Positions 2,867-61,916 of a DNA stretch of 64,000 bases are shown here, piece after piece (the stretch's first letter is position 1; each line of letters opens with the position of its first letter). This stretch comes from Rhipicephalus microplus (lineage: Eukaryota > Arthropoda > Arachnida > Ixodida > Ixodidae): NCBI RefSeq assembly GCF_043290135.1, contig NC_134709.1, forward strand, positions 69,521,456-69,585,455, read 5' to 3'. A program made the position numbers and the translations under genes. The notes beneath the pieces were generated by a model. That model saw only the letters and a list, made by a program, of their open reading frames with translations, did no database searches and was not told where the DNA came from.

Positions 2867-3879
2867 TTATAGCCGCGCACATAGTCCAGTTGTTTCTAAA
2901 AAGGTAATAACTGCTCTTGTGACCGCAGTTGCACTGTTGGTGTCTGGCCAAGGGCCCAACATGGTCTCATCAGTTAATGACCTACTGCGATATAGTTCAG
3001 TAGAAGAAATCAGTGTTTGTCGTTCACGTGCGTATGCTGGGCAGACACAAAATATGTGCTCAAGTGTTTCTGGCACATCATAGTGTTCACAATTAGGACC
3101 GGTGTCACTGCGACCGATAATATGGGCGTAACGTCTGGTGTACGCTACACCAAGATGAATGCGGTGGATCATACGTGTGAGTTGCCGTTTCAATTTAGGA
3201 GGCATGCGGAACCTGATTTCAGGGTCCCATTTGTGAAGTCGCTGGTGTCGCCGTTCCGGTTTGGTCCAGTGCTGAAGTGTGTAGCTGCGCATCACGCAGC
3301 AAAGCAGGGCCTTCGTGTCAGCTCGTGAAAACGCAATGCGTACTTCAGGGGCACTGCTTAAGGCATTTTTAGCTTCAGCGTCTGCCTCTTCGTTTCCCAT
3401 CACGCCGCAATGAGCGGGAATCCACTGGAAAGTTATAAGATGGCCATTTGTTGAAGCAACCTGAATAAGTTCTGTGATTTCTATTGCCAAGCTGTAATAC
3501 GGACCTTGCTTCATGATGCAATAAATGGTTTGCAAAGCCGGTTTGGCATCACAGAAAATCATCCAGGCTCGAGGTCGCTCTCCGGAAATAAACCTTATTG
3601 CCTCTCTGATAACGGCAAGCTCTGCGGCAGTTGATGTGGTTTTATGGTCCACTTTGAATCGTCGAGCTACCGGGTATCCATGTCTGGGATGACAAAGGCT
3701 GTGGCGGAGGTGTTTAGCGTGGTGGAGCTGTCGGTGTACACGTGCCGAGAATCACTGTACGTTGTGTAAATGTGATATAGGGTCAGGTGTCTGAGGCCAA
3801 CAGAAGAAATGAGCGACTTCTTCGTAATTCCAGGTATCGTAAAAGAGATAGGTGGCTTAGGCAGGACCCATGGAGGCAC
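2867..3879 (-). pseudogene. LINE ORF2 RNase H domain, broken
   Basis: Two open pieces (3667-3879 and 2867-3652) make up the RNase H end of ORF2. The first reads VYTDSSTTL. The second has STAAELAVI, then FCDAKPALQ and WIPAHCGVMGNEEAD, which are the D, E and D/H-type motifs of retroelement RNase H. A C-terminal Cys/His knuckle follows (CEHYDVPETLEHIFCVC). A stop separates the pieces near 3660. The tip of the first motif has TDSS where TDGS is usual. This is the 3' end of the minus-strand LINE and is not expected to be functional. Confidence 0.85.
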
Positions 3880-4011
3880 TGCATGGGCATTTGGCGGAGA
3901 AAACCTTGATGGTATAATATTTTCATGCCGCGATATTACTCTTGAGAAATTGCAATCTGGGTGAGTGGCGGGTAGTACTGACAGTGGGTGCTGTCTGTGT
4001 CTGCTCAGTAA

Positions 4012-5907
4012 TTAGAGTTGAACTCTAAGTGGCTCCCAGAGCATGTATGCACTGATGGGACAAGCCCGAGCCTCTGCAATCGTCCCATGTGTTGAAGTAC
4101 AGCGCGGTAGACCCAAGCATCTTCGCAAGCATTGAGCTTGAACACTCTCTAGTGTCTTCACACAACTAGGTCTCATATTGGAAAGCACCGGCATGCTGTA
4201 TCGAACGTATCCCACAAATAGAGCATTGTACAATTGAAGTAGCGATGATTCGGATGGGCCCCATCTTGCTCCTGCTACGTGGCGAAGAATGAGAGCAAAG
4301 CTCTTCAATTTAGATTTAAGTACTGCGACATGCCTCGTCCACGATAGATTTATGTGTACGACAACCCCAAGGAACTTGTGGTGCGTTACAGCAGGTATCG
4401 CTGTTTCATTAATAAATATCGCGTATTGTGACATATGCTTGCGCGTTAACGCAAACACAGCGCATTTGTCGATTGAAATAGTGAGCCCCTGATGACGTAG
4501 ATATTTGTATGTGATCGTCACTGCACGCTGTAGTCGAGCTCGCAATTGCGGACGAGTAGTTCTGGATGCCCATATGCATATGTCATCAGCGTACGCAGTG
4601 ATCTTCACCGTGCTGGGAAGTTCTGCTGCTAGGCCGATCATTGTGACATTGAATAGGATCGGGCTGAGAACTCCTCCTTGGGGAACACCACGATGAACCT
4701 TATATCGATCGGTGTCTCCGTTACTTGTCGTCATGTAAATGGTGCGGTCCCTAAGGTAGCTAAAATTCCAAGCGTACAGTCGTCCACCGATGTCGAAATT
4801 TTCCAGTGCGTCAAGGATCGCATAATGCAGCACATTATCGTAGGCATCCTTAATGTCTAAGAAGAACGCCGCCACTAGTCTGCGTCGGCTTCTTTCCTCT
4901 TCAACGCTGGTGATAAAGTCGACCACACCATCAATGGCAGATCGGCCTCTTCTGAAGCCGTTCATAAATGCAGGAAAGGAGGTGTTGCTCTCTAGAAGTC
5001 ACTCTATTCGTGCCTGTACCATTCTTTCCATCACTTTTCCGACGCAGCTGGCTAACGCGATTGGTCTGTAGGAGGAAAGTGCATAAGGACACTTCCCCGA
5101 CTTAAGCAATGCAATAATGCATCTGCATTTCCAATTAGCTGGGACCTCTCCTTACTCCCATGAGGTGTTATAAACAGATAACAGGATACGTCGTGCTTCT
5201 GTATCAAGATGGTTGAGTGCAGCATACGTGATTCCGTCAGGTCCTGGTGCGGATGATCGACGGGAGGCGGAAATCGCAGCGTCAAGCTCATGTATTGTAA
5301 AACGTACATCAAGGCACTGGTCAGACGATGGAGGCGCAATGGTAGTAAGAAGCTCATCAGTGGTGTCCACGATGAGGCTACAGTAGTCACTGGCTATCTC
5401 ATCTTCTGTCCGTCCCTGATGTATAGCAACAGCTTGAAATGGTTGACGTTGTTGGGGAGTTGTCTTCAAACTTCGTACCACCCACCAGATCGTAGATAGA
5501 GGTTGCCTGGGGTCTAGAGATCCACAGAAATTTCTCCAACGTTGCCTGTCAATCTCGTCAAGATGCCGAAGAACATGTCGTTGAGCTCGACGACAGGCGG
5601 AAAGGTCTGAAGGTGACTTCGTTCGTCTGTATCGGCGTTTGGCACGGCGACGGATTGCACGAAGGTCCTCGTATTGGGAGTCAACTGCTGATCTCTGCAT
5701 CGGTAGGTTAACCTGTTTGGTTGTGTCACGCAGTGAAGAAGCAATGATTTTCTCTACCTCGGATGAATCAGTGGTGTGCTCACAGCCAGACTTGACAGAT
5801 GCCTTGAACAGTGTCCAGTTGGTTTGATGGATGTACCGTGTGTGCGTGCGGCGAAACCACCTGAACTGAACACAGGTTGGAAGGTGGTCACTGCCGCGAG
5901 TGTCCAA
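4012..5907 (-). pseudogene. LINE ORF2 endonuclease tail and reverse transcriptase, broken
   Basis: The frame opens at the endonuclease motif GSDHLPT (near 5895). It runs through the linker with APGPDGITY and then the RT palm motifs: AAFFLDIKDAYDN, RGVPQGGVLSP, AYADDICIW and FLGVVVHINLSW. The catalytic YADD box is intact. Two in-frame nonsense codons interrupt it: TAA at 5152-5154, and TGA at 4999-5001 where the related copy has Trp. Otherwise the frame holds for about 1.9 kb. The family normally makes one polyprotein with endonuclease, RT and RNase H. Confidence 0.88.
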
Positions 5908-6570
5908 ATCTGTGCACCAACATGCGGAAGACAGAAGGTTACTGGAAACGAAACAGAGGTCGAGGCAGCTGCTGTAGGACGTGCCACGAACAAATGTAGG
6001 TGATGTGTCGTTGAGTACGCTTAGTCCATAGTTGTATATAAAATTGCTAAATTCTTTCCGCGATAATTCGTTGTAGTGCTACCCCAGAGAGGATGATGTG
6101 CATTAAAATCGCCGATCACAATGTGTGGCCTTTGTGCTGCTTGAAGAATGGTCCCCAGGTGGAAGCTGTTCATCTGTGCGCTTGGGTGTATGTATCCTCC
6201 TATTACGAAGATTGTTATTTATTTATTTATTTATTTATTTATTATTCGCTTTTATTGTTCGCTTTTTATGTGTTATAGTCAGGCTCACGTAATCATTGCT
6301 GGTATGCGACGCGACTTCATGCCCCAAGAACGTCAAATCACGGCGTATACAAACGAGAACTTTGCTAGTACTTTGATCACTGCGGGACCAAATCTGGATA
6401 TATCGAGATACACGAAAAGGTGAAACCATATTCGGTTCACATATAACGATAACAGGAAGTTGATATTTAAAAACCCATTGTCTGAAGTCTGATAGACGGC
6501 CACGTAGGCCATGAGCATTCCATTGCATAACAAGCGACTGGCGCATGCGTTCTTCGAACATCAGTGCCAT
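5908..6570 (-). pseudogene. LINE ORF2 N-terminal endonuclease, broken
   Basis: ORF2 probably starts at the ATG on 6570, six bases after the ORF1 stop TAA (6577-6579), the same close ORF1-ORF2 spacing as in the other LINE. Readable motifs are QWNAHGLRGRLSDFRQ and VIVICEPN. After a TAAA-type microsatellite (6211-6243) come IFVIGGYIHPSAQ and GDFNAHHPLWGS. A frameshift near 6040 moves the frame before SYSSCLDL and GSDHLPT. The microsatellite lies inside the endonuclease and replaces several residues found in the other copy. Confidence 0.8.
6211..6243. repeat. (TTTA)n microsatellite inside LINE endonuclease
   Basis: About eight tandem TTTA units between conserved endonuclease blocks of the minus-strand LINE. 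It reads as a post-insertion expansion. Confidence 0.9.
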
Positions 6571-6576
6571 GTTCAC

Positions 6577-7944
6577 TTACTGAAGAACCAGTAGAAGAGG
6601 CTCCAAAACCTCAATTAGCTGCACAGCCGCCTTAGCAGCGGGAGTGTTTAGGCTGCTGAGAATCTTACACATAGAACCCATCAAATTTTTAAGCATAGCC
6701 TTGACATCTGTGTTGTCCATCTTCTTGTTTTCTTCATTGGGGGTAGGGGCACTATGTGATGATGGCGCTACCGTAGCTCTTGACGGTAGTGAAGGCCACT
6801 AAGTCTTCGACATGGGGAGAGCCAATTACTAGTTTACTTGTGCTTGCGTGGACTGTATTGGCATTTGAGCATCTGTATCCTCCTTTCTGGCCGACAAAAG
6901 TAGGCTAGGAGGTGGTGAGGGCACGGTTTTGTGTGTCGAATTCGATAAGCTATGAGCACTGCTGCATCGTTTGCGTCGATGTCGCGAACGATGTTTACGG
7001 CGCCGTACAGCCCTTGCAGCTTCTCTGTGAGCGGAGTGGTCTCGAACCATCTTCTTCGGGATACTAATTTCATTCCTCTTTTTTGGGACATTCCTTTGAT
7101 GTTGCGTCGTGGGCGCCTGAGCATTTGGGCATTTGGCCACAGCATTGCAGTTATCACCATCATGAGGGCCACCACAATGCTTGCAGGCTACTGCACCCTT
7201 GCAAACTGCACTAACGTGCCCAAATTTCATGCATTTATGACATTGCAGAGGTTTTGGTACGTAAGGACATACCGAGTGCCTCACGTACCCAACTTTTACA
7301 TGTGTGGGTAACGTCTTCGACTAAAACACTACTTTAACACATCGCGTGCGTCCAAAGCGCTGGATGCCAAGCACGGGAGCCGATGATGACAGCAGTTTCT
7401 CGAGACTCGAGTCTGTTATCTCCTCATCCACATCGTATATAACTCCTGTTGTCGTTTCTTCGTCGTACGCGGAGAATGCGCAAACCGGAATGTTTCCTAA
7501 TCGAACAAATCGAACAATCGCTTTCAGCGTGTCCAATAAAGCTTTCGTAGTCACCTCCACGGACAGTATGTTCTTTCGGGTATTTAGGCGTATTTGTACG
7601 ACTTTCCCTGGAGCGATGAGCTCAAAGTACTCTGACAGGCTCTGCCTATTTAGAGAGTTCAAGATGTCTGTCTTCAATGTCGGCACATACGAAATGGTGT
7701 ACGACCGCATGCTACTCGCCTTTGTCGGTGCTTGCCGGCTAGTGGGCGATGTCCGGCTGATTTTCCTCTTCAGGCGTCGGCTTCGTACGACCACGTAGTC
7801 GCTGTCCGAAGTCATATCTTCAACGAAGAAGTCATCAGAGTTGTCAACATGGGACACGCTTGGGCCGAGGTGAGAACTTGCGCCAGACGCACTATGATGT
7901 GGTCGGCCCGGTCCCGGTTGCTGGATGGGGTTTTTATCCCCCAT
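6577..7944 (-). pseudogene. LINE ORF1 (nucleocapsid-like), two nonsense codons
   Basis: A single frame from the ATG at 7944 to the TAA at 6577-6579, interrupted only by in-frame stops at 7321-7323 and 6829-6831. The N-terminal part is acidic then basic. The central part (TLKTDILNSLNRQ to VIYDVDEEI) resembles an RRM-like or gag-like module. After the first stop comes VPKPLQCHKCMKFGHVSAVC, a CCHC knuckle, followed by two further Cys/His clusters and an Arg-rich stretch. ORF1 proteins of I-like elements bind the element RNA. No frameshift is visible across about 1.37 kb, so decay is by nonsense only. Confidence 0.8.
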
Positions 7945-8078: not shown

Positions 8079-8369
8079 GTTCTTTTTTTGTTTTTGTTTC
8101 CCTGGGAGGTTGGCTCATACCCACTCAGGGGGATTGGCCAAGAAAGTGTAGTGCAGTTTTTTTGTGATCATTTTAACTATGTGCAATGAATCGGTATTAT
8201 AATAAGTCTAATGTAAAAATAAAAACAACATAAAAAGAGCAAACGAAAAAAAAATCAAGTTGAGCAATTTTGAGATTTGAGGTGTTATGTTTACCACTCA
8301 GCTGCGTTTACTTCACTCTGGCCTTGAGAGTAATAAATATTTTTTTTATAAATAAATATTTTTGATTGA

Positions 8370-24345: not shown

Positions 24346-26181
24346 TCAAGCTATGTGCACGATGTCACTCGAAGGTGACGATGATGACGTTGAATCGGCT
24401 GGAACGATCTCGTATGTAACGTCAGTCACCTGGCGAACGACGCGGTATGGTCCAGTGTAGCGTGACAGCAGTTTTTCAGAAAGCCCTACACGCCGAGTGG
24501 GGGACCAGAGGAGGACAAGGAAACCCGGTGAAAAGTGCACGTTTCGATGATGGGAATCGTAGAGCTGTCTTTGGTGCTCCTGTGAAGCCTGCAGGCGGCT
24601 GCGGGCGAGTTGGCGTGCGTGGTCGGGTCGCGCGATGGCTTCGCCGGCATACTCCGTGACCGAGGGCAGCAAGGTGTCAAATGGTAGGGCGGGTTCTCGG
24701 CCGTATAGAAGATAGAATGGTGAATAGCCGGCAGTGTCGTGACGTGATGAATTATATGTGAACGTCACAAATGGCAAATGAACGTCCCAGTCCTGGTGGT
24801 CGGCCGCTACGTATTTAGAAAGCATGTCGGTTATGGTGCGGTTGAGGCGCTCCGTAAGACCGTTCGTTTGCGGATTGTATGAAGTGGCAAACTTGTGCTT
24901 GGCAGAGCAAGAGCGCAGGATTTCATCAACAACAGCTGATAGGAAGGTGCGGCCCCGGTCAGTGAGAAGTTGGCGTGGAGCTCCTTGTACTAAAATAATA
25001 TCATATACCAGAAAGTCCGCCACATTGGTTGCGCAACTCGTCGGAAGTGCTCGTGTGATAGCGTACCGTGTCGCATAGTCAGTGGCGACAGCGATCCATT
25101 TGTTGCCTGAGCTGGAGATCGGGAATGGGCCAAGCAGGTCGAGGCCAACTCGAAAAAAAGGTTCAATGGGAATGTCGATCGGCTGAAGGAATCCAGCTGG
25201 TAGGGAAGATGGCTTTTTGCGGCGCTGGCAGGGTTCACAAGCGGCGACGTAGCGTCGAACAGAGCGGGCAAGACCAGGCCAAGAGAAACGACGACGTACA
25301 CGGTCGTATGTGCGAGAGACGCCCAAGTGGCCCGCCAAAGAAGTGTCATGAAGGTGGTTGAGAACAGTCGCCCGAAGATGTGCTGGTATGACGGGGAGCA
25401 AGTCATGGGCATATGGATCGAGGTTACGGCGATACAGGATGCCGTCTTTAACCAGGAACATTTGTAGAGATGCGTCGCGAGGCCTTGACTCAAGTTTGCC
25501 AATGATGGTTTGCAGGGAAGCATCCAGGTGTTGTTCGTGCCCAAGGTTGAGCAGCTGCGTCACAGACAGAAGGTCTGGAAAGGTGTCAGTATGGGCAGCC
25601 TCTTCCACGGGGTAGCGTGATAAGCAATCAGCATCTTGGTCTGACCGCCCTGTTTTGTACGTTACGGTGAACGTGTATTCTTGTAATCGTAGGGAACAAC
25701 GAGCGAGGCGTCCTGTGGGATCCTTGAGTGAGGCCAGCCAGCAGAGCGCGTGATGGTCAGTGACTACCCGGAATGGACGCCCGTATAAGTATGGGCGAAA
25801 CTTGGCGACTGCCCACACGAGAGCGAGACACTCACGTTCCGTGATTGAATAGTTGCGCTCGGCTGTAGATAGCAGGCGGCTTGGATATGCTATAACACGG
25901 TCATGTCCGCGTTGATGTTGCATTAGTATTGCCCCGATGCCATGCCCACTAGCGTCAGTGAGAACCTCGGTTGGAGGTGATGGATTGAAATGGGCTAAAG
26001 TCGGCGGTGTTGTAAATACGATGCACTGTGCTCGGCGAACAAGATGGTGACAGTTCATAAACAACCAGCCACCAACGTCGTCTTTCTCTTTCTTCCAGAC
26101 AGGCTGTGCCGGCTGTTGCGTATCAATATGTTCGCCTGTTGCGTTATACGGACGCGTAGCACGCGATCCGTTGATTCGCAA
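24346..26181 (-). CDS. Gypsy pol remnant (RNase H and integrase) fused in frame to LTR
   Basis: A 611-codon frame with no internal stop. Residues 1-19 come from flanking host DNA, about 20-56 are translated 5' LTR, and 57 onward is pol. RNase H motifs are LTDASG at about 74-79 and VTDHHALCW near 140-148. The integrase has an H2C2 zinc finger (H278, H285, C315, C318) and a catalytic triad at D348, D408 and E444 with the canonical 35-residue spacing. A GPY-type C-terminal module follows at about 577. The RT catalytic domain is absent. The family enzyme inserts element cDNA into the host genome. The fused N-terminus arose by deletion, so the true product, if any, is unknown. Confidence 0.85.
   Translation of the reverse strand: MRINGSRATRPYNATGEHIDTQQPAQPVWKKEKDDVGGWLFMNCHHLVRRAQCIVFTTPPTLAHFNPSPPTEVLTDASGHGIGAILMQHQRGHDRVIAYPSRLLSTAERNYSITERECLALVWAVAKFRPYLYGRPFRVVTDHHALCWLASLKDPTGRLARCSLRLQEYTFTVTYKTGRSDQDADCLSRYPVEEAAHTDTFPDLLSVTQLLNLGHEQHLDASLQTIIGKLESRPRDASLQMFLVKDGILYRRNLDPYAHDLLPVIPAHLRATVLNHLHDTSLAGHLGVSRTYDRVRRRFSWPGLARSVRRYVAACEPCQRRKKPSSLPAGFLQPIDIPIEPFFRVGLDLLGPFPISSSGNKWIAVATDYATRYAITRALPTSCATNVADFLVYDIILVQGAPRQLLTDRGRTFLSAVVDEILRSCSAKHKFATSYNPQTNGLTERLNRTITDMLSKYVAADHQDWDVHLPFVTFTYNSSRHDTAGYSPFYLLYGREPALPFDTLLPSVTEYAGEAIARPDHARQLARSRLQASQEHQRQLYDSHHRNVHFSPGFLVLLWSPTRRVGLSEKLLSRYTGPYRVVRQVTDVTYEIVPADSTSSSSPSSDIVHIA
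26014..26125 (-). repeat. Truncated 5' LTR of gypsy element
   Basis: Identical to the 3' LTR from the outer TG end for 106 bases. It stops near TATTTA, where pol sequence (CAACACCGCC) begins. Confidence 0.85.
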
Positions 26182-27095
26182 ATGAAACCATTAGAGCGTA
26201 GTGGGTCCCCAAGAACTGTTAATTCAGTAGACATTCTATGATTGTTGGAAATGGTCAATGCTACGCGCTTATAGTCTTTAGATTCCTTGCGGCACGGTTG
26301 AAATGTGTACCGAGAATCGAAGCCACGAGGCACGATCAAGCTATCGCGTTCTACTCATGAAAGCGATGCTTGTTTGACGCTCTCTTGTTACTATTACCCT
26401 CTAAGGGGAGTCGAGCAAGAAGCCGGCGGTTAATGTGAGCGTACAAGTTAGGAATATACAGGCTAAAGAAAGCTGATTACAATGCGCTCAACAGGAAGAG
26501 ATGATTTTGGAACAAAGTGATGAAAAAAAAGAAACTAAAGAAGAGATATATTTATGTTTTCAAATTAGTAGTACATAATTCCTCAGCAGGTCACATCAAG
26601 TTTCCTCCAAGTTTTATTTTGTCGCCTAGGCAGGCAGACTCATACGCACCAGGGCGATAGACTGTCGTCGATTGCAAAAAAGAATGAGAGGGAGATCATG
26701 AGAAAATAACGGTGCTTCGCACTATCGAATGCTTCCCTGAACTTTTACTCCGCTATAATTACCAATCAAGCCTCCAAGCTCGCCACGTGCGTCATTACAT
26801 TTCTGGTGTCTGAGCGTCAAAGAAATTTAGAGGAAGAAGTGATGGTTACGTGCGGGTAGGGTCAAGCCACATCAAGAGATGGTTTGACCGCTTGCTCAGC
26901 AAACATTTATGTTTTTGGTAGGATTATTTTATAAACTACTTTTTTAGATTGGCTTCATTTTCATTTTAGTTTAATTTAAGTATCCTGCCGCCCGGTTCTT
27001 TGCCCATTCTCCTCTGTGGGTGAGCGCCGTCCATCAGAGGTCATCAGCATCAGCATCATCAAGAACTTTCTGCGAGCTATCCACCAGTGGGCGAA
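26130..27095. other. No gene recognised
   Basis: Intergenic sequence before the helicase-like ORF. A (CAT)n-like string at 27039-27060 directly precedes that ORF and could belong to its 5' UTR. Confidence 0.35.
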
Positions 27096-28733
27096 ATGTT
27101 ACACAGTCCGCTGATCGGTGGTCAGCAGCAGTTTAATTTGGACGTACGTGATTTGATATGGCAAGAGCACATGCTAGATGCCATTCCCGACCCCCTCTTT
27201 ACCCTAGGTGGGCGGAGAGGTGTCGTAAACTATATGAGTATGCAGCTCCCAGGGGTGAACCTATGCTACAGTGCTCGACGAGGATTTTACCAGTTCCCGC
27301 TGCCGCCGGCCATCGGAGACAACTACGTGTTCAGCTACGAGCGGTGGATCAGTAAAAGGGAGGTCAGCTACGCCTCCAGAAGCAAGGTTGGGCGAAACGT
27401 CAGACCACCGGGCTGGAACAAGATTGTGCTGCCAGTGTTCAACAAGAACCTGTACCGCGAACACATTGTGATGGCTGGACGATCGGCAAGCGAAGTGAAT
27501 GGCTACAGAAAAGACAACAATATCACCGTCGCTGGACGTGCCATCCCAAAACCGATTTTAAGCTTCGAAGAAGCCGGCTTTCCCGACATCGTAACGCAAG
27601 TGTTTTTGGCCCAGGGCCTTGGCTCATCACCGACAAGCGTGCAATCCCAGTGCTGGCCCGTCATTTTCAGTGGCAGAGACCTTCTTGCCGTCGTTCCGAT
27701 TAGTTCAGAGAACACGTCTATGGCCTACGTCGTTCCGGCGGTCCGTCACGTCCACAGCCAAAATTCTGTGCAACTCGGAGGCGGACCTACAGTGCTCATT
27801 TTAGCCTCGACGCGCGAGCTGGCCTTGCATGTGCAGCAGACGTTCCGCCACTTCGAGAAGGATTCGGGCGTTCGAACTGCATGTCTTCTTCCGGGTGAGT
27901 CAAAGCAAGCGCAACTGACGCAGCTTGACAAAGGGTGCGAGGTTTGGGTGACGACGCCAAGCCGCCTCGTAGCCCTCATGGAGGAATGCATGGTGAATAT
28001 TGGCCGCTGCACACTTCTAGTTTTGGACGAAGTGGACCGCATGCTAGCGATGGGCTTAGGAAAGAATCTTCGCCTTATTGTTGAGAACGTCCGGCCCGAC
28101 TGTCAGACTCTCACGTGGCTGACGTCGAACACGAGAGAGGCGTGCCAGCTGGCTGATGAAGTCATGGAAGACTACGTGACCATCAGCTTCGGTGATACGA
28201 GCCAGCAATCCCAAAACCGGCGTGCGCAAGACATTGTCTACGTTTGCGACGAGGGAGACAAGGAAGACAGGCTCGTCGCGCTCTTCGAAGACATCCTCGA
28301 CAACAAGCAAGACAAGGCAGTCGTGTTTGTCGAGACCAAAGGAAAAGTAGACCACCTCGTAACGAGCTTGCGGCTGCGGAACTGGCCGGTCGTGGGTGTC
28401 CACAGCAAGAAAAGCGAGCAGGAGCGTGAGTGGGCGTTGAACGCTTTTCGTTTCGGCAGAGTGCTCGTTCTCGTGGCAACCGACATGGTGGTGCGTGACC
28501 TTGAAGCCCAAGACGTCCGCTTCGTGGTCAACTACGACTACCCGCGCAGTGCGGACGATTACGCGCTTCGCGTTAAGCCCGCAGTTCGTGACGACAGTAC
28601 GGGAAGGGCGTACACTTTTCTGACGCCTACTCAAAGCCGCCATGCCAAGGAATTGATCTGGATTCTTCGAGACGCAGGACAAGCGGTTCCTCAAGAGGTG
28701 TTGAAAGTTGCGAGGAAACCGACATGGTTTTGA
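27096..28733 (+). CDS. DDX5/p68-like DEAD-box helicase copy, intronless, catalytic motifs eroded
   Basis: A 545-codon intronless frame from ATG 27096 to TGA 28731. Residues from about 110 follow the DDX5/Dbp2 helicase fold: FNKNLYREH, then PKPILSFEEAGFP, the Q-motif region VQSQCWPV, STRELA (Ia), TPSR (Ib), NYDYPRSADDY and AYTFLTP. The enzymatic motifs are changed. Motif I (200-207) reads VPISSENT instead of AQTGSGKT. DEAD is DEVD (311-314). SAT is TSN (343-345). Motif V reads ATDMVVRDL, and motif VI HRIGRTAR is LRVKPAVR (491-498). Family members unwind RNA using ATP; this protein should not hydrolyse ATP by the usual route. The 110-residue N-terminus is unfamiliar and the RG-rich tail of DDX5 is absent. 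It looks like a retrocopy kept open, either a pseudo-helicase or a young pseudogene. Confidence 0.88.
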   Translation: MLHSPLIGGQQQFNLDVRDLIWQEHMLDAIPDPLFTLGGRRGVVNYMSMQLPGVNLCYSARRGFYQFPLPPAIGDNYVFSYERWISKREVSYASRSKVGRNVRPPGWNKIVLPVFNKNLYREHIVMAGRSASEVNGYRKDNNITVAGRAIPKPILSFEEAGFPDIVTQVFLAQGLGSSPTSVQSQCWPVIFSGRDLLAVVPISSENTSMAYVVPAVRHVHSQNSVQLGGGPTVLILASTRELALHVQQTFRHFEKDSGVRTACLLPGESKQAQLTQLDKGCEVWVTTPSRLVALMEECMVNIGRCTLLVLDEVDRMLAMGLGKNLRLIVENVRPDCQTLTWLTSNTREACQLADEVMEDYVTISFGDTSQQSQNRRAQDIVYVCDEGDKEDRLVALFEDILDNKQDKAVVFVETKGKVDHLVTSLRLRNWPVVGVHSKKSEQEREWALNAFRFGRVLVLVATDMVVRDLEAQDVRFVVNYDYPRSADDYALRVKPAVRDDSTGRAYTFLTPTQSRHAKELIWILRDAGQAVPQEVLKVARKPTWF

Positions 28734-33697: not shown

Positions 33698-35032
33698 ATG
33701 CTTCAGGACACACCTGAGAATGTTCCAGGCGTGCAACCGTCGCGCCGGACTTCGTCGTCCAGGAAGCGTAGCAACGCGTCGAGCGACACCGACAGTGAGG
33801 CAACCAATCTGTATTCGGACGGCTTTGAGTCATCGGATGATGACTTCACAGTCGTCATGAATTGATCTACAAAACGAATACTGCTGTGGACGGCATCGTC
33901 GGCAAGTGTTTCCACCGTTAAGACTGCACCACAGCGGTGGCCGCACACCATGCTGTTTATGCCCGAAGACCCTGCATCTAACTTGCGACTCCTCAACAGG
34001 CAAGTTCTTTCTGTGCTTCTCGAGGAAACCGCGCCGAATGAGATCAAAGACGTGAGGATCAATGCACGAAAGAATGTCCTTGCTGTAGACGTTATGCACC
34101 GTAGCGCACTGCAAAGCCTTCGGCACATAACAGAAATCGGCAACGTGAATGTTCGGCCAATGGTCGCTACAGGTTGTAATGGCAGTGTTGGCGTCATTTA
34201 TGATGTGGATCTTTCCATCTCAGCTAATGACCTGCCAATACTAATAAAGCCAGCGACTGAAGGCACCCGCATTACGCACATTACCAGACTCGGCAACTCA
34301 CGCTGCTTGAGGTTTGTGTTCGAGGGAGACAGCCTTCCCTCGTATGTTTAAGTTGGCCATGTTCGCCACTCAGTGCGTCCTTACATACCGAAGCCACTGC
34401 AATGCTACAAGTGCTTCAAGATGGGACACGTAAAAGGTGTCTGTGAGAACAAAGTTGTGTGTCCGTGGTGCGCTGAGTCTCACTCAAAAGACGCCTGCAG
34501 TGCCACCATACTACGATGTCCAAACTGCCACGGCGCTCATGAGGCCTCATCCAAAGATTGCCCGCGGGTGCGAAACGAGCACGCGGTACTCAGGCGTATG
34601 GTGCGGGACAATTCAACGCACAGGGAAGCTGCCGCTACACTACGCCGACGACGGCGTCGTGGGCGAAGACCATCACGGAAAAACGCCTCTACCGATGGAG
34701 AGATGTCATCCTCTATCAAAGAGGCTGACCCACAAACACCGAGCTCACTGAAGACGGATACTGCCAAACAGAAGAAAGGGACAGCAGTCGCGCCTTCCGA
34801 ACAGTGGCCCTCTCTTCCACGACGTCAACCTACTTCGGAGCTGCATCAAGTCCCGCCGCCCTCGACGACCCCTCAAACCAGTGATGCGATGAATGAAGAT
34901 CAAGTGATAAGCTTGCTGCAATCACTGATGAGTACCATGCGTGTCCTACTGAGTAATATGAAGACTTCTGCTGCGCAGACCGCACTGCATGTGCTGTACA
35001 CCCTGAGTCCGGTGCTTGCAGCTCTAAGGTAA
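33698..35032 (+). pseudogene. LINE ORF1 with two in-frame stops
   Basis: One frame from ATG 33698 to TAA 35030, interrupted by TGA 33863-33865 and TAA 34349-34351 and otherwise open. The N-terminus is Ser-rich and acidic. The middle module (NLRLLNRQVLSVLLEE to GVIYDVDLSI) aligns with the minus-strand LINE ORF1. The C-terminal part has CYKCFKMGHVKGVC (C-x2-C-x4-H-x4-C) and two further clusters, CPWCAESHSKDAC and CPNCHGAHEASSKDC, then an Arg-rich stretch and a helical tail. ORF1 proteins bind element RNA and form particles. With these stops no full-length protein is expected unless there is readthrough. Confidence 0.88.
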
Positions 35033-35036
35033 AACC

Positions 35037-38000
35037 ATGGCCAGCGAGGCACCGTCGTTTCGAGTGGAAGTCAAGAATGTATCTGTCTTTCAGTGGAACG
35101 CCAGAGGACTGAAGTCGCGCATGTCTGACTTTAGACAATTTGTATTTGTGAACCGCTTCCCCATTATTGTGATTTGTGAACCCAACCTGTGTGCTTCAAT
35201 CAAGCTGTCAGGATATGAGTGCTTTATGTCCTCCACACACAGAGACTGCAGCAAAGTTATTGTATTCATGCGCCATGACCTCACTTACGTTCACCACAGA
35301 GTCTCGCCTGATGAAGGGAATCAGTATGTGTGCCTTACTGTGAAGAAGGATAAGGTTGCTTTCACGATTATCGGAGCTTACTTATCTCCATCAAGCCGCC
35401 TTGGCTGCGAGCGCTTACGCGGTATTCTGACATCGACTCCAAGGCCATGGGTGATCACTGGCGACTTCAATGCCCACCATTTCCTATGGGGAAGCTCCAG
35501 GGACAACTCTAGAGGAAGAAAATTGGTGTCCTTAGCCTCGGAGTACGAACTATGCGTTTGTAACGATGGAAGCCCTACATATTTACGCGGATCAGCCTAT
35601 AGCAGCTGCCTGGACCTTACATTGGTTTCTCGCTCACTTATCAGGAAAGTGCACTGGTTTTCAGATCTGGAAACGCGGGGCAGCGACCATATACCAACTT
35701 ACCTGTGTATAGAAGGTTTCACCAGCTCTAAGTCCTCAAGAGGCCTCAAGTACACCGATTGGCCGAAATTCAAAATGTTAATGGAAGACTGCTGTACCGA
35801 CGGCTTATCATATAACCTAGAGGACTCGATAAAGGATGTCCTGCAGAATACCACGCATACACATTTGACTAGTCACAAGCGCACTGATTTCGACATCGAG
35901 CTTGAGAAACTTCGCGCAATACGCCGTCGTGCAGAACGAAGGTACCGACGGACAAAGTGCATGGATGATTTGAGGCTGGCTAGACGCATTCAAAAGAAAA
36001 TGCAGCGGCACATGGATAAACTGGCTAGGCGACGTTGGACATCCTTTTGCGAGTCGTTGGATCTACGAAAGCCCCTATCACTGATATGGCGAACTGTCCG
36101 GGGTCTTAGCACAACCTTGGGTCAGCGACACCCGTTTACATCTCTGGCACTTCACCTTCGATGCAGAGAGATTGACGTCGCAGAATCTTTCTGTAGAAGA
36201 ATCGCCGGTGATTCCAATTGCACAGTATCAAGAACGGGAACTTTTGACAACCCACCGCCCTCACGTGATCCCCGTATGGAATGCCAGTTTTCTATGGATG
36301 AGCTTGAGGCGGCACTGGCTCTGTGCAGACGTTCTTCAGCACCCGGTCCTGACGGCATTACCTATCGTGCCCTTTGTAATCTTGGAGACGAAGCTCGGAA
36401 AGCACTCTTACGCCTATACAACGACTCCTGGCAGACTGGTACTGTTCCCCAGGCATGGAAGTCAAGTCGCCTCATTCCACTTCTAAAGGCTGGTAAATCT
36501 CCTTTAGATATTGCCTCATACCGTCCTATCGCACTTGCCAGTTGTGTGGGAAAAACGATGGAACGAATGATTCTAACACGAATGGAGTGGTATTTAGAGC
36601 ACTACGAAGTCTATCCAGTATCCATGACCGGATTCAGGCGCGGCCATTCGTCAATCGACAACGTTGTTGATCTGGTGACATATGTTCAACACCAGAAAGC
36701 CTGTAAGAGACTGTGCGCCGCCCTGTTTCTAGACGTTAAGGAGGCTTACGACAATGTCACCCATGAAGCCATCCTTGGTGCTTTGGAAACAGTAGGTCTT
36801 GGTGGCAAGATATATATGTGGGTGTACAGCTACTTACAGCTGAGATCATTTTACGTGATGACAGCGAATGGCCCAACACCTGATTATTACAGCAGCCGAG
36901 GAGTTCCTCAGGGAGGAGTGCTAAGCCCTACTCTTTTCAACCTAACTCTCATTGGTCTAGTCGAGCAGCTACCTAGCACTGTAGAACTTTCTGTCTATGC
37001 TGATGACATCTGCATTTGGACATCAGGTGTGACAAGGCCTCAGCTTCGCGCCCGCCTTCAGAAGGCTGCTACAACGACGTCATGCTATCTTCGTAAACAA
37101 GGCCTCGAGGTGTTCTGCGGAAAATGTGCAGTGGTAGCGTTCACGCGGAAACCAATGTCTGCTTACGGTATATCGATTAATGAAGAATACATATCGTTCA
37201 GCAGAAGCCACAGGTTCTTGGGAGTCATAATAGATAGAAACCTGTCGTGGACTCCACACGTGAACTATGTGAAGAAGCGGCTGATCGCAATATGCCACAT
37301 GCTCAAATTCCTTGCAGGAAAAAATTGGGGAGTGCCCATACCATCCATGCTACAACTGTACAGAGTGCTGTTTATCGGATTCTTACAGTACAGCTTACCT
37401 GCAATGTCTAACACCGGCAAGACCAACCTGCGTGCAATTCAGAGCATTCAAGCCCAAGCACTTAAGATATGCCTTGGAATACCCCGCAGTGCTTTAACGG
37501 CTGAAACCATTGCCATCGCTCAAGATCACTCGATAAATACGCATATTATTACCAAGACAATGCGCATGCACCTCAGGCATTATGCCAGGACCCCTTCTCA
37601 CCACCTGGCGAGCCTAGCTGCTGAAAGGCCCCGCACGACATACGGCACTATTGTCTCCAAGCATCGTTCACTGTTTGCTGAGACATACGCACCTGCATCA
37701 AAGCCACTGCTTCCTCCTTGGAGCTTGAGCCGGCCGCGAGTTCACTTATTGATTCCAGGAATGAGGAGAAAATCGGACTTACCAACACATGCCCTGAAAC
37801 AACTGAGTCTATTCCTACTGGAAGAAAACTACAGTAACCACGTGCACATTTACACGGATGGCTCTACTACGCCGTCTAGTTCAGGTGGAGCAGTGGTTAT
37901 ACCATCACAAGGGATAACTCGGTGTTTTAAGACTTCACATGTGACAAGTTCCACGACGGCAGAACTCGAGGCTCTGTGCAATGCACTGGAACACATCAAT

Positions 38001-38717
38001 TCAGAAGAAAGACCAGGTAAATGGGCTGTGTTTTCTGACTCAAAACCAGCGTTACAGTGCCTGACATCAGTTCTCCGACGCGGATGCCACGACCAGTTGA
38101 CCTACCAAACCGTGAAACTTCACCACCTGTTAATGCGAAAAGGCCATGACATCGTCTTGCAGTGGTTACCTGGGCATAGTGGTATAGGCGGCAATGTTTC
38201 TGCAGATCACGCTGCTCGCACGTCACATAAAGAAGCGAACAGCGTTCCGATACCGCTTTCAAGAGCGGATGCGGCGAGGCAGATTCGTCAACTGGCCCGC
38301 AGTGTCACACTGACTGAGTGGAACACACCAAGCATACGACGTACACGTCTGCACGAGCTCGACCCTTCCCTACAACTCCGGCCTCCACCCGGCCTACGTC
38401 GACGTGAAGCTTCGCTTCTCTATCGCCTTTGGCTGGGAGTTGCTTTCACGAAAGCTTATACCACGTTAATCAGAATTACTGACAGTGCGGCGTGCGATGT
38501 TTGCGGCACCGACGAAAATATCGAACACCTGCTGTGTCATTGTCCTCGATTTGCCTCAGAGAGACAAGTACTTGCCAACGCAATGCGGCGACTGGATGAT
38601 CGGCCTCTTTCTGTGCAGGTGCTATTACAGCAACGTACACATGCCTCGACAGCCCACAAGGCAGTGAAAGCCCTGCTGCGTTTCCTGAGAAAGACAGGCT
38701 TGTGTGAACGCCTCTGA
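35037..38717 (+). CDS. LINE ORF2 polyprotein: endonuclease, reverse transcriptase, RNase H
   Basis: 1,226 codons with no interruption. Endonuclease (about 10-225): VFQWNARGLKSRMSDF, VICEPN, GDFNAHHFLWGS near 142, GSDHIPTY near 215. Reverse transcriptase (about 460-830): SYRPIALAS, FLDVKEAYDN near 563, RGVPQGGVLSP, VYADDICIW with YADD at about 654-657, and FLGVIIDRNLSW. RNase H (about 935-1065): YTDGS near 939, TAELEAL, SDSKPAL near 1000, WLPGHSG near 1042. A Cys/His tail (CDVCG...HLLCHC) starts near 1152. All catalytic boxes look intact. It nicks target DNA and reverse-transcribes the element RNA there. ATG 35037 sits four bases after the ORF1 stop, suggesting coupled translation. Confidence 0.96.
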   Translation: MASEAPSFRVEVKNVSVFQWNARGLKSRMSDFRQFVFVNRFPIIVICEPNLCASIKLSGYECFMSSTHRDCSKVIVFMRHDLTYVHHRVSPDEGNQYVCLTVKKDKVAFTIIGAYLSPSSRLGCERLRGILTSTPRPWVITGDFNAHHFLWGSSRDNSRGRKLVSLASEYELCVCNDGSPTYLRGSAYSSCLDLTLVSRSLIRKVHWFSDLETRGSDHIPTYLCIEGFTSSKSSRGLKYTDWPKFKMLMEDCCTDGLSYNLEDSIKDVLQNTTHTHLTSHKRTDFDIELEKLRAIRRRAERRYRRTKCMDDLRLARRIQKKMQRHMDKLARRRWTSFCESLDLRKPLSLIWRTVRGLSTTLGQRHPFTSLALHLRCREIDVAESFCRRIAGDSNCTVSRTGTFDNPPPSRDPRMECQFSMDELEAALALCRRSSAPGPDGITYRALCNLGDEARKALLRLYNDSWQTGTVPQAWKSSRLIPLLKAGKSPLDIASYRPIALASCVGKTMERMILTRMEWYLEHYEVYPVSMTGFRRGHSSIDNVVDLVTYVQHQKACKRLCAALFLDVKEAYDNVTHEAILGALETVGLGGKIYMWVYSYLQLRSFYVMTANGPTPDYYSSRGVPQGGVLSPTLFNLTLIGLVEQLPSTVELSVYADDICIWTSGVTRPQLRARLQKAATTTSCYLRKQGLEVFCGKCAVVAFTRKPMSAYGISINEEYISFSRSHRFLGVIIDRNLSWTPHVNYVKKRLIAICHMLKFLAGKNWGVPIPSMLQLYRVLFIGFLQYSLPAMSNTGKTNLRAIQSIQAQALKICLGIPRSALTAETIAIAQDHSINTHIITKTMRMHLRHYARTPSHHLASLAAERPRTTYGTIVSKHRSLFAETYAPASKPLLPPWSLSRPRVHLLIPGMRRKSDLPTHALKQLSLFLLEENYSNHVHIYTDGSTTPSSSGGAVVIPSQGITRCFKTSHVTSSTTAELEALCNALEHINSEERPGKWAVFSDSKPALQCLTSVLRRGCHDQLTYQTVKLHHLLMRKGHDIVLQWLPGHSGIGGNVSADHAARTSHKEANSVPIPLSRADAARQIRQLARSVTLTEWNTPSIRRTRLHELDPSLQLRPPPGLRRREASLLYRLWLGVAFTKAYTTLIRITDSAACDVCGTDENIEHLLCHCPRFASERQVLANAMRRLDDRPLSVQVLLQQRTHASTAHKAVKALLRFLRKTGLCERL

Positions 38718-40731: not shown

Positions 40732-40986
40732 ATTGATTGATTGATTGATATGTGGGGTTTAACGTCCCAAAACCACCATATGATTTTGAGAGACGCCGTA
40801 GTGGAGGGCTCCGGAAATTTCGACCACATGGGGTTCTTTACGTGCACTCAAATCTGAGCACACGGGCCTACAATATTTCCACCTCCATCGGAAAAGCAGC
40901 GGCCGCAGCCGGGATACGAACCCGCGACCTGCGGGTTAGAGGCCGAGTACCTTAGCCACTAGACCACCACGGCGGGGCGAAAACAT
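40732..40986 (-). mobile_element. Ruka-like SINE with 12-bp target duplication
   Basis: Same family and orientation as 17760-18005: (TTGA)n tail, GTAGTGGAGGGCTCCGG body, CGGGTTCG-type box B and CTTAGCCACTAGACC box A region. AAAGCATAAATG flanks it at 40720-40731 and 40987-40998. Confidence 0.9.
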
Positions 40987-43369: not shown

Positions 43370-43608
43370 GCCCCGCCGTGGTGGTCTAGTGGCTAAGGTA
43401 CTCGGCTGCTGACCCGCAGGTCGCGGGTTCGATTCCCGGCTGCGGCGGCTGCATTTCCGATGGAGGCGTAAGTGTTGTAGGCCCGTGTACTCAGATTTGG
43501 GTGCACGTTAAAGAACCCCAGGTGGTCAAAATTTCCGGAGCCCTCCACTACGGCGTCTCTCATAATCAAATGGTGGTTTTGGGACGTTAAACTCCACAAA
43601 TCAATCAA
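43370..43608 (+). mobile_element. Ruka-like SINE with 14-bp target duplication
   Basis: The best-preserved copy. It has box A GTGGTCTAGTGGCTAAGG and box B GGGTTCGATTCCC, body ATTTGGGTGCACGTTAAAG and tail (TCAA)n. TGAAGCTGGGGCTC flanks it at 43356-43369 and 43609-43622. Confidence 0.92.
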
Positions 43609-43884: not shown

Positions 43885-45720
43885 AATCCGCAGTCCTCAA
43901 CTTTCCGCGACCCTTTCGTTCCAAAGAACTACGCAGTTTCCTTGGACTCGCATCGTACTTTCACCGCTTCATTCGCAACTTTGCCACTATTGCCGCTCCT
44001 CTTTACAAGCTCCTTGCTAGTACCCGTTCCTTCGATTGGAATGATCAATGCGAAACCTCGTTTCAAGAGCTCAAGCAGGCACTCACATCCCCACCGGTGG
44101 TTTGTTATTTTAATGACAAGGCACCTACGATATCACACACTGACGCTAGTAGACAAGGAATCGGCGCCGCACTCCTCCAGCGCGACCATGCCTTTCGTGA
44201 GAAAGTTGTCGCGTATGCAAGCCGCACTCTGACCTCTGCAGAGAAGAGGTACTCGATAACCAAACAAGAGTGCTTGGCTGTTGTCTGGTCCATCCAAAAA
44301 TTTCCTCCGTATCTACATGGTCGACATTTTACTGTTGTGACAGACCACCATGCTCTTTGCTGGTTGCCCACAATCAAAAACTTGTCGGGACGACTTGTCC
44401 GCTGGATTCTCCGGTTACAATCGTATGAATTCGACGTCATCTACAAGACTGGAAGACAACACCAAGATGCCGACGCTTTGTCACGATGCGCTTTGCCGCA
44501 GTCTTCGGCGCACGTCACATCCCCTTGTCAAATCGGCTATACGGAGGACGCCTCGTCGATATCATCGATTTCTTCTCTACCTTCATCCACCCGTCCGTCA
44601 GTACTTACCACTCACCAGCGAGCCGATTCTTATTGCACTGACATCATCGGTCAGCTTACCGGCGCTTCATCTTCTCCAAATGCCAGACTCCGGAAACAAC
44701 TTCGACTATTCAATTTGGAGGACGATGTGCTACATCGATACATTTTACACCCGGAAGGCCACCGATGGGTTCCCGTCGTACCACGCGCACTACGCACAGA
44801 AGTTCTGCGCGCTTCCCACGACGACCCGACGTCAGGACACTTGGGTTACTACAAAACATACGAGCGCATCCGCAGTCGATTCTTCTGGTCAGGTCTTTCC
44901 ACGACGGTAGCTAAATATATTGCCTCGTGCGCACTTTGCCAACACCGCAAGCGGCCCACTACTGCTCCAGTCGGGACCCTACAACCACTTCCTTGTCCAT
45001 CAGAGCCGTTCTCTGTCGTCGGAATTGACCTCTTCGGGCCCCTCCCAAATACATCAGACGGCAAGAGATGGATCGTCACCGCGGTTGATCACTTGACCCG
45101 GTACGCTGAGACGGCCTCGGCTTCGATCACTTCAGGAACTGCTTCGGAAGTAGCAACTTTCTTCTTGCATTCTATTTGCCTACGTCACGGAGCCCCTCGT
45201 GTTCTTTTGAGCGACCGGAGCAAGGCATTTTTTTCAAGCACGCTCAGTGAAGTTCTTCAAGCATCAAAAACATTTCATAAAACAACATCTAGCTATCACC
45301 CGCAAACCAATGGCTTAACGGAAAGATTTCATTGCACGCTGTGTGACATGCTGTCCATGTATATCCGACCGGACCATCGCAATTGGAATGCCATACTTCC
45401 CTTTGTCACGTATGCATATAATACGTCAGTTCAACGAACCACAGGCTATTCTCCATTCTTCCTAGTATACGGACGCCAACCGACATCACCACTCGACGTT
45501 TCATTCTTTTCTGGCCCCGTCAACACTTCACCATTCGTTTGCGACCAGTTTCTGTCCCGTGTTGCTCGATGCCGTCGTCTTGCCCGTGTAAACACCGAAG
45601 CTAGTCAAGAAGATCGCAAACATCGTTACGATGCCACTCACCGTGTCGTTCTCTACCGCCCTGGCGACGATGTACTTCTGTGGACTCCTGCGCGAACGCC
45701 TGGTTTTAAGCGAGAAGCTT
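43885..45720 (+). pseudogene. Gypsy pol remnant: RT end, RNase H, integrase
   Basis: The open frame begins at about 43885 (NFPRPFRSKELRSFLGLASY, the RT connection region), upstream of the first ATG-like codon, and runs to TGA at 45720. Counting from 44097, RNase H has HTDASRQG near 14-21 and VTDHHALCW near 81-89. The integrase has an H/C finger (HDDPTSGHLG and CALCQHRK), then D311, D373 and E409 with 35 residues between the last two. A single-base frameshift near 45700 shifts the end to the neighbouring frame, which continues LSEKLESRYLGPY to the stop at 45879. The N-terminal RT palm is missing, so this copy cannot be autonomous. Confidence 0.88.
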
Positions 45721-45879
45721 GAGTCACGCTATCTTGGCCCCTACAAAGTTATCGAACAGACTTCACCGGTGAACTACCTTGTCACACCTGTTCATGTCCC
45801 CACTGACCAACGCTGCCGCGGGACAGAGATTGTTCACGTTGCGCGTCTTAAGCCCTATCGTATGCGTTCCCCAGCGTAA
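45721..45879 (+). pseudogene. Gypsy integrase C-terminus after frameshift
   Basis: Continues the integrase C-terminal GPY module in the next frame (YLGPYKVIEQ, then EIVHVARLKPY). The equivalent segment of the 24346-26181 copy is in frame. Confidence 0.85.
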
Positions 45880-61789: not shown

Positions 61790-61916
61790 CATGATGATGG
61801 ATGGTAGCGCAGACAACGAACACGGACAAGAGAAGGCACATAGACACAACACAGCGCTAACTTTCAACAACAGTTTATTACACGCAGATCTCCGTGGTGT
61901 ATGCGATCCACCACGC
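61789..61916. repeat. Left 128-bp inverted repeat of Penelope-like element
   Basis: Begins GCATGATGATGGATGG and ends GATCCACCACGC. Its complement is 63071-63198. Its first G is also the last base of the left target duplication. Confidence 0.93.

What the first reader, a model, noticed from the sequence alone, without database searches (positions are those of the whole stretch)
27096..28733. Intact intronless DDX5-like ORF with nearly every catalytic motif lost
545 codons stay open and the helicase scaffold is well kept (Q-motif region, STRELA, NYDYP, AYTF). Yet motif I (VPISSENT), III (TSN), V and VI (LRVKPAVR) no longer have their catalytic residues; only D and E of DEAD survive, as DEVD. 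Open frame plus targeted motif loss suggests a retrocopy kept as a non-enzymatic RNA-binding or decoy protein, not simple decay. A young pseudogene is the alternative.
Basis: partly seen in the sequence, partly recalled or inferred. Interest (0 to 1): 0.78.

Follow-up and report, generated by a model that had tools for sequence, protein, structure and literature searches.

The report
Tick family of dead DDX17-like helicases
This tick gene is one member of a tick-specific family of RNA-helicase copies that have lost parts needed to use ATP yet still show the mark of natural selection on their protein sequence, so they may do a job, such as binding RNA or partner proteins, without being enzymes.

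Summary
The ORF at 27096-28733 (+) is real, open for 545 codons and intronless. It is not an isolated retrocopy. In this genome (taken as Rhipicephalus microplus) at least 23 placed relatives exist, 20 on one chromosome (C10); 12 are open. Further members occur in R. appendiculatus, R. sanguineus, Hyalomma and Dermacentor. Of 33 family rows none keeps motif I whole (TGSGKT) or motif III (SAT), and none of 32 keeps HRIGR of motif VI; 12 of 12 canonical DDX5/17-type rows keep each. So the loss belongs to the family, not to this copy. The family forms one group (100/100) that fits best beside the intron-bearing tick DDX17-like gene: a founding retroposition, then DNA duplication. The protein is under selection (window vs nearest open paralogue omega 0.28; window's own branch 0.34, 2dlnL 11.75 against 1). 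RNA-facing residues are kept better than ATP-facing ones (0.71 vs 0.42; modest support). A 33-bp block lies upstream of 16-18 of 23 copies and at the 5' end of a LINE in the window. Best reading: a lineage-specific pseudohelicase family; the mechanism (ATP-independent RNA binding or competition with DDX5/17) is inferred. This copy may be relaxing recently. Expression was not tested.

The parts
27096..28733 (+). 545-aa intronless pseudohelicase ORF (DDX17-like fold, motifs I, III, VI lost)
27096..27395 (+). codons 1-100: N-terminal region of the 545-aa subclade, no Pfam match and no PDB sequence match; omega 0.48 against L014, weaker constraint than the core
27633..28133 (+). RecA-like domain 1 (Pfam DEAD, aa 180-346); omega 0.255 for codons 101-365 against L014
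28278..28574 (+). RecA-like domain 2 (Pfam Helicase_C, aa 395-493); omega 0.234 for codons 366-545 against L014
26996..27028 (+). 33-bp upstream block (consensus TTCTTGGCCRATCCCCCNNAGTGGGTANGNGCC), 100 bp before the start codon; candidate promoter or 5' UTR element shared by many family copies
   Evidence: seed of the same copy left out
26742..26825 (+). further upstream stretch 76% identical to the upstream region of the broken copy L027
8111..8149 (-). the same block near the 5' end of a LINE, 167 bp before its ORF1-like frame (7944-7324)

Best explanation
The ORF is one member of a tick-specific family of pseudohelicases. An mRNA of an intron-bearing tick DDX5/17-type gene, best fitted by the DDX17-like gene on C7, was retroposed in an ancestor shared by Rhipicephalus, Hyalomma and Dermacentor. 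The copy lost motif III and the arginine finger of motif VI early and its P-loop degenerated; it kept the two-lobed helicase fold, and recent multiplication was by DNA duplication, mostly along one chromosome. Shown here: the family, its shared motif loss, one group on the tree, purifying selection on the protein, segmental recent duplicates, the upstream block. Inferred: single retroposition, and that the proteins act without ATP hydrolysis, as RNA-binding or partner-binding scaffolds or as competitors of active DDX5/17. Most likely job (speculative): tuning a pathway in which DDX5/17 (Rm62) works, such as small-RNA or antiviral RNA handling in the tick.
For: Relatives: 28 proteins P0002-P0029, 25 of them named from ticks, three from an unnamed source. 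Genome: 23 placed copies, 12 open, 20 of 23 on C10. Motifs: 0 of 33 rows keep TGSGKT, 0 of 33 SAT, 0 of 32 HRIGR, all three lost in 32 of 32 rows with the region present; canonical 12 of 12 keep each. Tree: 32 family rows form one side of a branch at 100/100. With 12 of the 33 family rows and two outgroups, holding family plus tick DDX17-like together costs nothing (p-AU 0.51); holding family plus the other canonical rows is 18.8 lnL worse (p-AU 0.058). Two exons of the C7 gene end inside stretches that are continuous in the copies. Selection: window-L014 omega 0.28, dS 0.71, 2dlnL 101.7; tips: window 0.344 (2dlnL 11.75 against 1), L014 0.293 (42.9), broken L027 0.591 (4.7). Residue retention: ATP/catalytic 0.42, RNA-contact 0.71, other invariant core 0.56; one-sided permutation P 0.045 and 0.026. 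Fold: DDX17 core structures are the top solved matches, TM 0.78 by target and 0.63 by query length.
Against: No expression or protein evidence was tested. The retention contrast is modest, P values are not corrected, and the two site classes were drawn up from recalled knowledge. Within the ATP class some residues are often kept: P-loop K in 71% of 28 rows, D and E of DEAD in 86% and 68%, two arginines of motif VI in 93% and 74%; KT of the P-loop survives in 5 of 33 rows (L010, L011, L017, P0026, P0029). Some RNA-facing residues are lost (first G of GG 0 of 28, G of RGLD 1 of 28, P of PTRE 21%). The three tip omegas do not differ significantly (2dlnL 5.8, 2 df), so the broken copy is no clean contrast. 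P0002 reads through other frames near its N-terminus, and 14 of 31 differences between it and the window fall on sites invariant in 7 relatives, where 50% of sites are so. Eleven of 23 placed copies are broken. The link to small-RNA or antiviral work rests only on the parent type.
Confidence: 0.72

Rival explanations
1. This particular copy is a pseudogene in the making: the family is functional, but the window copy has recently lost its role and is still open only by chance.
For: P0002 (other R. microplus assembly) passes from frame 0 to two other frames after residue 33 and back. Outside that stretch 31 of 446 residues differ, 13 derived on the window side, 11 on the P0002 side, and 14 of 31 fall on sites invariant in seven relatives. 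Simulated neutral frames stay open in 26% at 0.02 substitutions per site, so a recent loss would not show. The related copy L027 is already broken.
Against: The window's own branch has omega 0.344 with 2dlnL 11.75 against 1 and the frame is fully open. L014 against P0007 shows the same near-random placing (10 of 23, partly an end frameshift in P0007), so assembly error or ordinary within-species variation may explain it.
Confidence: 0.25
2. All copies are neutral processed pseudogenes that look conserved because they are young.
For: Intronless, many copies, 11 of 23 placed copies broken.
Against: Among the 12 open copies 64 of 66 pairs share only 32-56% of residues (matrix). Omega is 0.15-0.38 in 10 of the 11 pairs tested, the exception being the near-identical L024/L025 (0.62, not different from 1). 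No simulated neutral frame survived 0.2 substitutions per site.
Confidence: 0.04
3. The proteins, or some of them, are still enzymes using an altered nucleotide site.
For: DEAD is intact in 6 of 33 rows and the last D in all 33; P-loop KT survives in 5 of 33; P-loop K in 71% of 28 rows.
Against: SAT is gone in 33 of 33 and HRIGR in 32 of 32; the P-loop stretch is one residue longer in 26 of 33 rows and two longer in 2.
Confidence: 0.05
4. Selection acts on the RNA, for example as a source of small RNAs against the parent or transposons, not on the protein.
For: TE-rich surroundings; upstream block shared with a LINE.
Against: Codon-level constraint (omega well under 1) while synonymous sites have diverged.
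Confidence: 0.05

Closest known systems
DDX17/DDX5 (p68/p72; Rm62 in Drosophila), DEAD-box helicases
   Same: Both RecA-like domains, the N-terminal flank of the core, motifs Q, Ia, Ib, IV, parts of V; best PDB match by sequence and fold
   Different: Motifs I, III, VI lost in the family rows; the Gly/Arg-rich C-terminal tail of the canonical proteins is absent from the window protein; intronless; found only in three tick genera in the databases searched
Utp25/Def, called the first fully validated pseudohelicase (PMC9539457: abstract and part 1 of 2 of section 3 read)
   Same: Helicase fold with vestigial motifs
   Different: Utp25 is an essential ribosome-assembly protein; here it is a multicopy, fast-diverging family of retrogene origin that still keeps many RNA-facing residues; no function shown
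Dead paralogues in RNA pathways, e.g. Drosophila Cutoff (recalled, no call)
   Same: Catalytically dead, lineage-specific paralogue of an RNA enzyme
   Different: Function of the tick family unknown; no link to piRNA shown

Membership tests
DEAD-box RNA helicase, as active enzyme | Walker A / motif I TGSGKT | tested here: not met
   0 of 33 family rows, window VPISSENTSMAY; single residues such as K are often kept
DEAD-box RNA helicase, as active enzyme | motif III SAT and motif VI HRIGRxxR | tested here: not met
   0 of 33 and 0 of 32
DEAD-box fold superfamily (Pfam DEAD + Helicase_C) | profile matches above curated cut-off and two RecA-like domains | tested here: met
   90.9 and 57 bits against cut-offs 26 and 23.5; Foldseek DDX17 TMt 0.78
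DDX5/17 lineage | groups with DDX5/17 rather than other DEAD-box proteins | tested here: met
   tree with DDX43-like and DDX46-like outgroups, 12 of 33 family rows; only these two outgroups were used
Retrogene | intronless where the parent has introns | tested here: met
   two exons of the C7 gene (L041) end at GPIV and KEDK; the copies run through
Retrogene | target-site duplication and poly-A tail | tested here: inconclusive
   only a short A-run about 85 bp past the stop, judged by eye; target-site duplications not searched for
Pseudohelicase in the sense of PMC9539457 | vestigial motifs and helicase fold | tested here: met
   motifs; fold of the window protein; L028 model made but not searched
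Pseudohelicase in the sense of PMC9539457 | essential or otherwise demonstrated function | not testable with these tools
   no expression or knock-down data
LINE-derived promoter | upstream block descends from a LINE 5' end | tested here: inconclusive
   one LINE in the window carries it (it was also one of the seeds of the consensus); genome-wide count not obtained

The most novel reading that the evidence does not exclude
A retroposed DDX17 acquired a LINE-type promoter block in an ancestor of Rhipicephalus, Hyalomma and Dermacentor ticks, lost ATPase activity, and radiated into more than twenty fast-evolving, ATP-independent RNA-binding decoys or dominant-negative partners that tune DDX5/17 in transposon or virus control, a tick counterpart of the dead paralogues of the fly piRNA pathway.
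Probability: 0.2. Interest if true: 0.85.

Novelty: new variant of a known kind. Interest (0 to 1): 0.62.

Why it matters
Pseudohelicases are hardly documented: the word occurs in 3 papers of the held library, one of which (PMC9539457, 2022) presents Utp25 as the first fully validated one. A young, multicopy, selected family of dead DDX17 paralogues would show a helicase scaffold being reused without ATP, with intermediates still visible (TGSHKT in Dermacentor, SSENKF in Rhipicephalus). It is a natural set of variants for asking which helicase residues matter apart from catalysis. Nine of the 28 database relatives are named 'ATP-dependent RNA helicase DDX5', which would mislead RNAi and virus work in ticks.

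Tried and rejected
A full genome census by protein, by Helicase_C family and by the upstream pattern was attempted and never answered. The count of 23 is a lower bound: one search scored 51 of 198 candidates, of which I read 43 (26 family places, 3 of them on unplaced contigs; 17 other helicases) and did not fetch 8. A gene on C11 (L030/L031) was considered as parent and dropped: it falls on the outgroup side. The N-terminal 100 residues were tried as a known domain and gave no Pfam or PDB sequence match. Continuing amplification by retroposition was considered; the three recent pairs are alike across nearly the whole 5.5 kb, flanks included, which fits DNA duplication. The idea that the P-loop region is poorly defined in the model is not general: mean pLDDT there is 68 in the window model and 85 in the L028 model. 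Papers: listings only for (no paper); no title or abstract start there names a tick DDX5/17 retrogene family. PMC13105059: passages and word counts, 'helicase' and 'DDX5' 0 times in the main text. PMC3160391: passages, a multi-exon helicase nested in papilin, apparently a different gene. PMC2676286: passages, Rm62 listed with tick RNAi factors. PMC11631522 is not held.

Full report
What is there. Window 27096-28733 (+) is an open frame of 545 codons. It matches Pfam DEAD (90.9 bits) and Helicase_C (57 bits) above their cut-offs. Among solved structures DDX17 is best by sequence (368 bits) and by predicted fold (TM 0.78 by target, 0.63 by query length, rmsd 4.6; model mean pLDDT 79, pTM 0.54). 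The other long frames in the window look like transposable elements: Ty3-type pol at 24346-26181 (-) and 44097-45722 (+), LINE frames at 2867-7944 (-) and 33830-38717 (+).

The genome and the family. The window lies on C10 of a 3.26-Gb genome. A copy in L009 is identical to R. microplus protein P0016 and contig lengths agree, so the species is taken as R. microplus. The protein search gave 28 close relatives (P0002-P0029): 25 named from Rhipicephalus (microplus, appendiculatus, sanguineus), Hyalomma asiaticum and Dermacentor (silvarum, andersoni), three from an unnamed source; four are exactly 545 aa long. After them the scores fall to fungal and bacterial helicases. A profile search added no further tick, although canonical DDX5/17 proteins of Amblyomma, Haemaphysalis, Ixodes and Ornithodoros are in the same database. 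Both searches scored only the 7996 candidates sharing most words, so absence is not proof.

Copies in this genome. One search scored 51 of 198 candidates. I read 43 of the 51: 23 placed family copies, 3 family copies on two unplaced contigs, and 17 other helicase matches; 8 were not fetched. Of the 23, twelve are open (506-547 aa from a Met) and eleven are broken. Twenty of 23 are on C10, which is 3.4% of the genome (binomial 5e-27; the copies are not independent), three on C4. The unplaced contigs are 99.98% identical to L009 and 97.1% to L020 and were left out of the count. The recent pairs L024/L025 (97.9%), L020/L022 (97.1%) and L016/L035 (90.7-95.3% in three pieces) are alike over nearly the whole 5.5-kb stretch, flanks included, which means DNA duplication. 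The two nearest relatives of the window, L014 and L027, lie about 108 and 135 kb away on C10.

Motifs. In an alignment of 33 family rows (12 open genomic copies and 21 database proteins, a few of them allelic or near-identical) and 12 canonical rows, TGSGKT is kept in 0 of 33, SAT in 0 of 33, HRIGR in 0 of 32; each is kept in 12 of 12 canonical rows. All three are lost in 32 of 32 rows with the region present. DEAD itself survives in 6 of 33. The P-loop stretch is one residue longer in 26 of 33 rows and two longer in 2; in 5 it has the canonical length (L011, P0008, P0024, P0026, P0029). P0024, P0026 and P0029 read TGSHK(S/T), the least changed form. KT survives in 5 of 33. So the loss belongs to the family, with motifs III and VI gone throughout and motif I degraded to different degrees.

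Is the loss selective? I took the 202 core positions invariant in 11 canonical rows and asked how often 28 family rows (five dropped: four near-duplicates and the partial P0029) keep the residue. All: 0.56. ATP/catalytic sites (17): 0.42. RNA-contact sites (16): 0.71. Others (169): 0.56. One-sided permutation P 0.045 and 0.026, uncorrected. The assignment of sites to the classes is recalled; PMC9539457 divides motifs into RNA, ATP and linking ones in its Figure 1, but the text I read does not list them. Against a clean split: P-loop K is kept in 71%, D and E of DEAD in 86% and 68%, two arginines of motif VI in 93% and 74%, while RNA-facing G of GG (0 of 28) and G of RGLD (1 of 28) are lost.

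Origin. The C7 gene L041 is a canonical, intron-bearing DDX17-like gene: two exons read with TGSGKT, DEAD and SATWP, and both exon ends fall inside stretches that are continuous in the copies. On the tree the 32 family rows lie on one side of a branch at 100/100 (several long branches are flagged there). With DDX43-like and DDX46-like outgroups and 12 of the 33 family rows, holding the family with the tick DDX17-like clade costs nothing (p-AU 0.51); holding it with the other canonical proteins is 18.8 log units worse (p-AU 0.058, not below 0.05). This fits one retroposition before the split of the three genera, then duplication.

Selection. Pairwise codon models on 11 pairs: window-L014 omega 0.28, dN 0.20, dS 0.71, 2dlnL 101.7 against omega 1; ten pairs give 0.15-0.38, the near-identical L024/L025 0.62 (not different from 1). 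Six pairs have dS above 2 and are only qualitative. On a five-copy tree the window branch has 0.344 (2dlnL 11.75 against 1), L014 0.293 (42.9), broken L027 0.591 (4.7); the three do not differ significantly (5.8, 2 df). By region, window against L014: codons 1-100 0.48 (2dlnL 5.9), RecA1 0.255, RecA2 0.234. Simulated neutral frames stay open in 26% at 0.02, 6% at 0.05, 0.2% at 0.1 and 0 of 1000 at 0.2 substitutions per site.

Against this copy. P0002, from another R. microplus assembly and two gene numbers from P0012 (the L014 counterpart), is the window gene with a stretch after residue 33 read in the two other frames before returning. In residues 100-545, 31 of 446 differ; 13 are new on the window side, 11 on the P0002 side, 7 unclear; 14 fall on sites invariant in seven relatives, where 50% of sites are so. 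In four comparisons between more distant members the share is 16-34%. L014 against P0007 shows 10 of 23, partly an end frameshift in P0007. This may be draft-assembly error, within-species variation or recent relaxation.

Upstream block. A 33-bp block (TTCTTGGCC-ATCCCCC--AGTGGGTA-G-GCC) lies 33-310 bp upstream, same strand, of many copies. With the copy's own seed left out, the best match in the 500 bp upstream beats all 576 null windows from 25 non-family loci in 16 of 23 copies; two more (L011, L018) reach P about 0.03; five show nothing (L012, L013, L019, L026, L028). On the opposite strand 1 of 23 beats all null windows and 3 of 23 are at P 0.03 or less; downstream 0 of 23. Starts of most broken copies were extrapolated, and recent duplicates are not independent. 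The block is not confined to these places: a profile search also finds it elsewhere in family loci (L009 7780, L013 840, L014 4498, L017 4375, L018 701, L020 4705, L022 4645) and at 8149-8111 (-), 167 bp before an ORF1-like frame of a LINE in the window, which was one of the seeds; it finds none at E 1 or less in the non-family loci. I read it as a candidate promoter or 5' UTR element, possibly LINE-derived; repeated insertion of a dispersed repeat is the alternative. Its genome-wide number could not be obtained.

Expression. Not tested. Leads only: P0003 is listed with no genomic contig, and P0013, P0018 and P0025 come from contigs of 1.8-2.1 kb in a source that also holds intron-free canonical DDX17 (P0096), hence cDNA-like contigs; since the copies have no introns this does not prove transcription.

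Mechanism. Shown: fold predicted to be kept, catalytic motifs gone, selection on the protein. Inferred: ATP-independent binding to RNA or to DDX5/17 partners, as scaffold or competitor. The parent type (Rm62) is listed among tick RNAi factors in PMC2676286 (passages), which makes small-RNA or antiviral pathways a reasonable first place to look. My odds: about 0.9 that the family is non-catalytic, 0.85 that it is functional as protein, 0.4 for the RNA-binding or competitor mechanism.

Novelty. Searches of the held paper library (listings) showed no report of this family; most subscription papers are not held. It is a new variant of a known kind: a lineage-specific, multicopy pseudohelicase family of retrogene origin.

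Noticed in passing
window 33830-38717 (+): LINE with ORF1-like frames and an uninterrupted 1226-aa ORF2 (endonuclease, RT, RNase H): perhaps recently active.
   Followed up: partly
window 8111-8149 (-): The helicase-family upstream block near the 5' end of another, broken LINE (2867-7944, minus).
   Followed up: partly
window 24346-26181 (-) and 44097-45722 (+): Two Ty3-type pol frames (RNase H, integrase); the first lies about 1 kb upstream of the helicase ORF, and L048 holds a relative of it (67-70% identity).
   Followed up: no
window 61894-62937 (+): 347-aa frame with a GIY-YIG-like stretch (recalled motif), perhaps Penelope-like; no Pfam match at E 0.001.
   Followed up: no
window 43374-43449 (+) and 40901-40973 (-): A tRNA (ARAGORN: tRNA-Ser GCT; Rfam tRNA), and a weak Rfam tRNA match on the other strand that may be a tRNA-derived SINE.
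   Followed up: no
L024/L025, L020/L022/L045, L016/L035: Recent segmental duplicates of both open and broken family copies, the placed ones spread over C10.
   Followed up: partly
P0024, P0026, P0029 (Dermacentor); L016, L019, L035 (R. microplus): Least-degenerate branch of the family (TGSHKT), open in D. andersoni but broken in the three R. microplus copies seen.
   Followed up: partly
L006 (C11:249744864): Copy of a DDX43-like helicase (like L002) with five stops: another intronless helicase copy, decayed.
   Followed up: no
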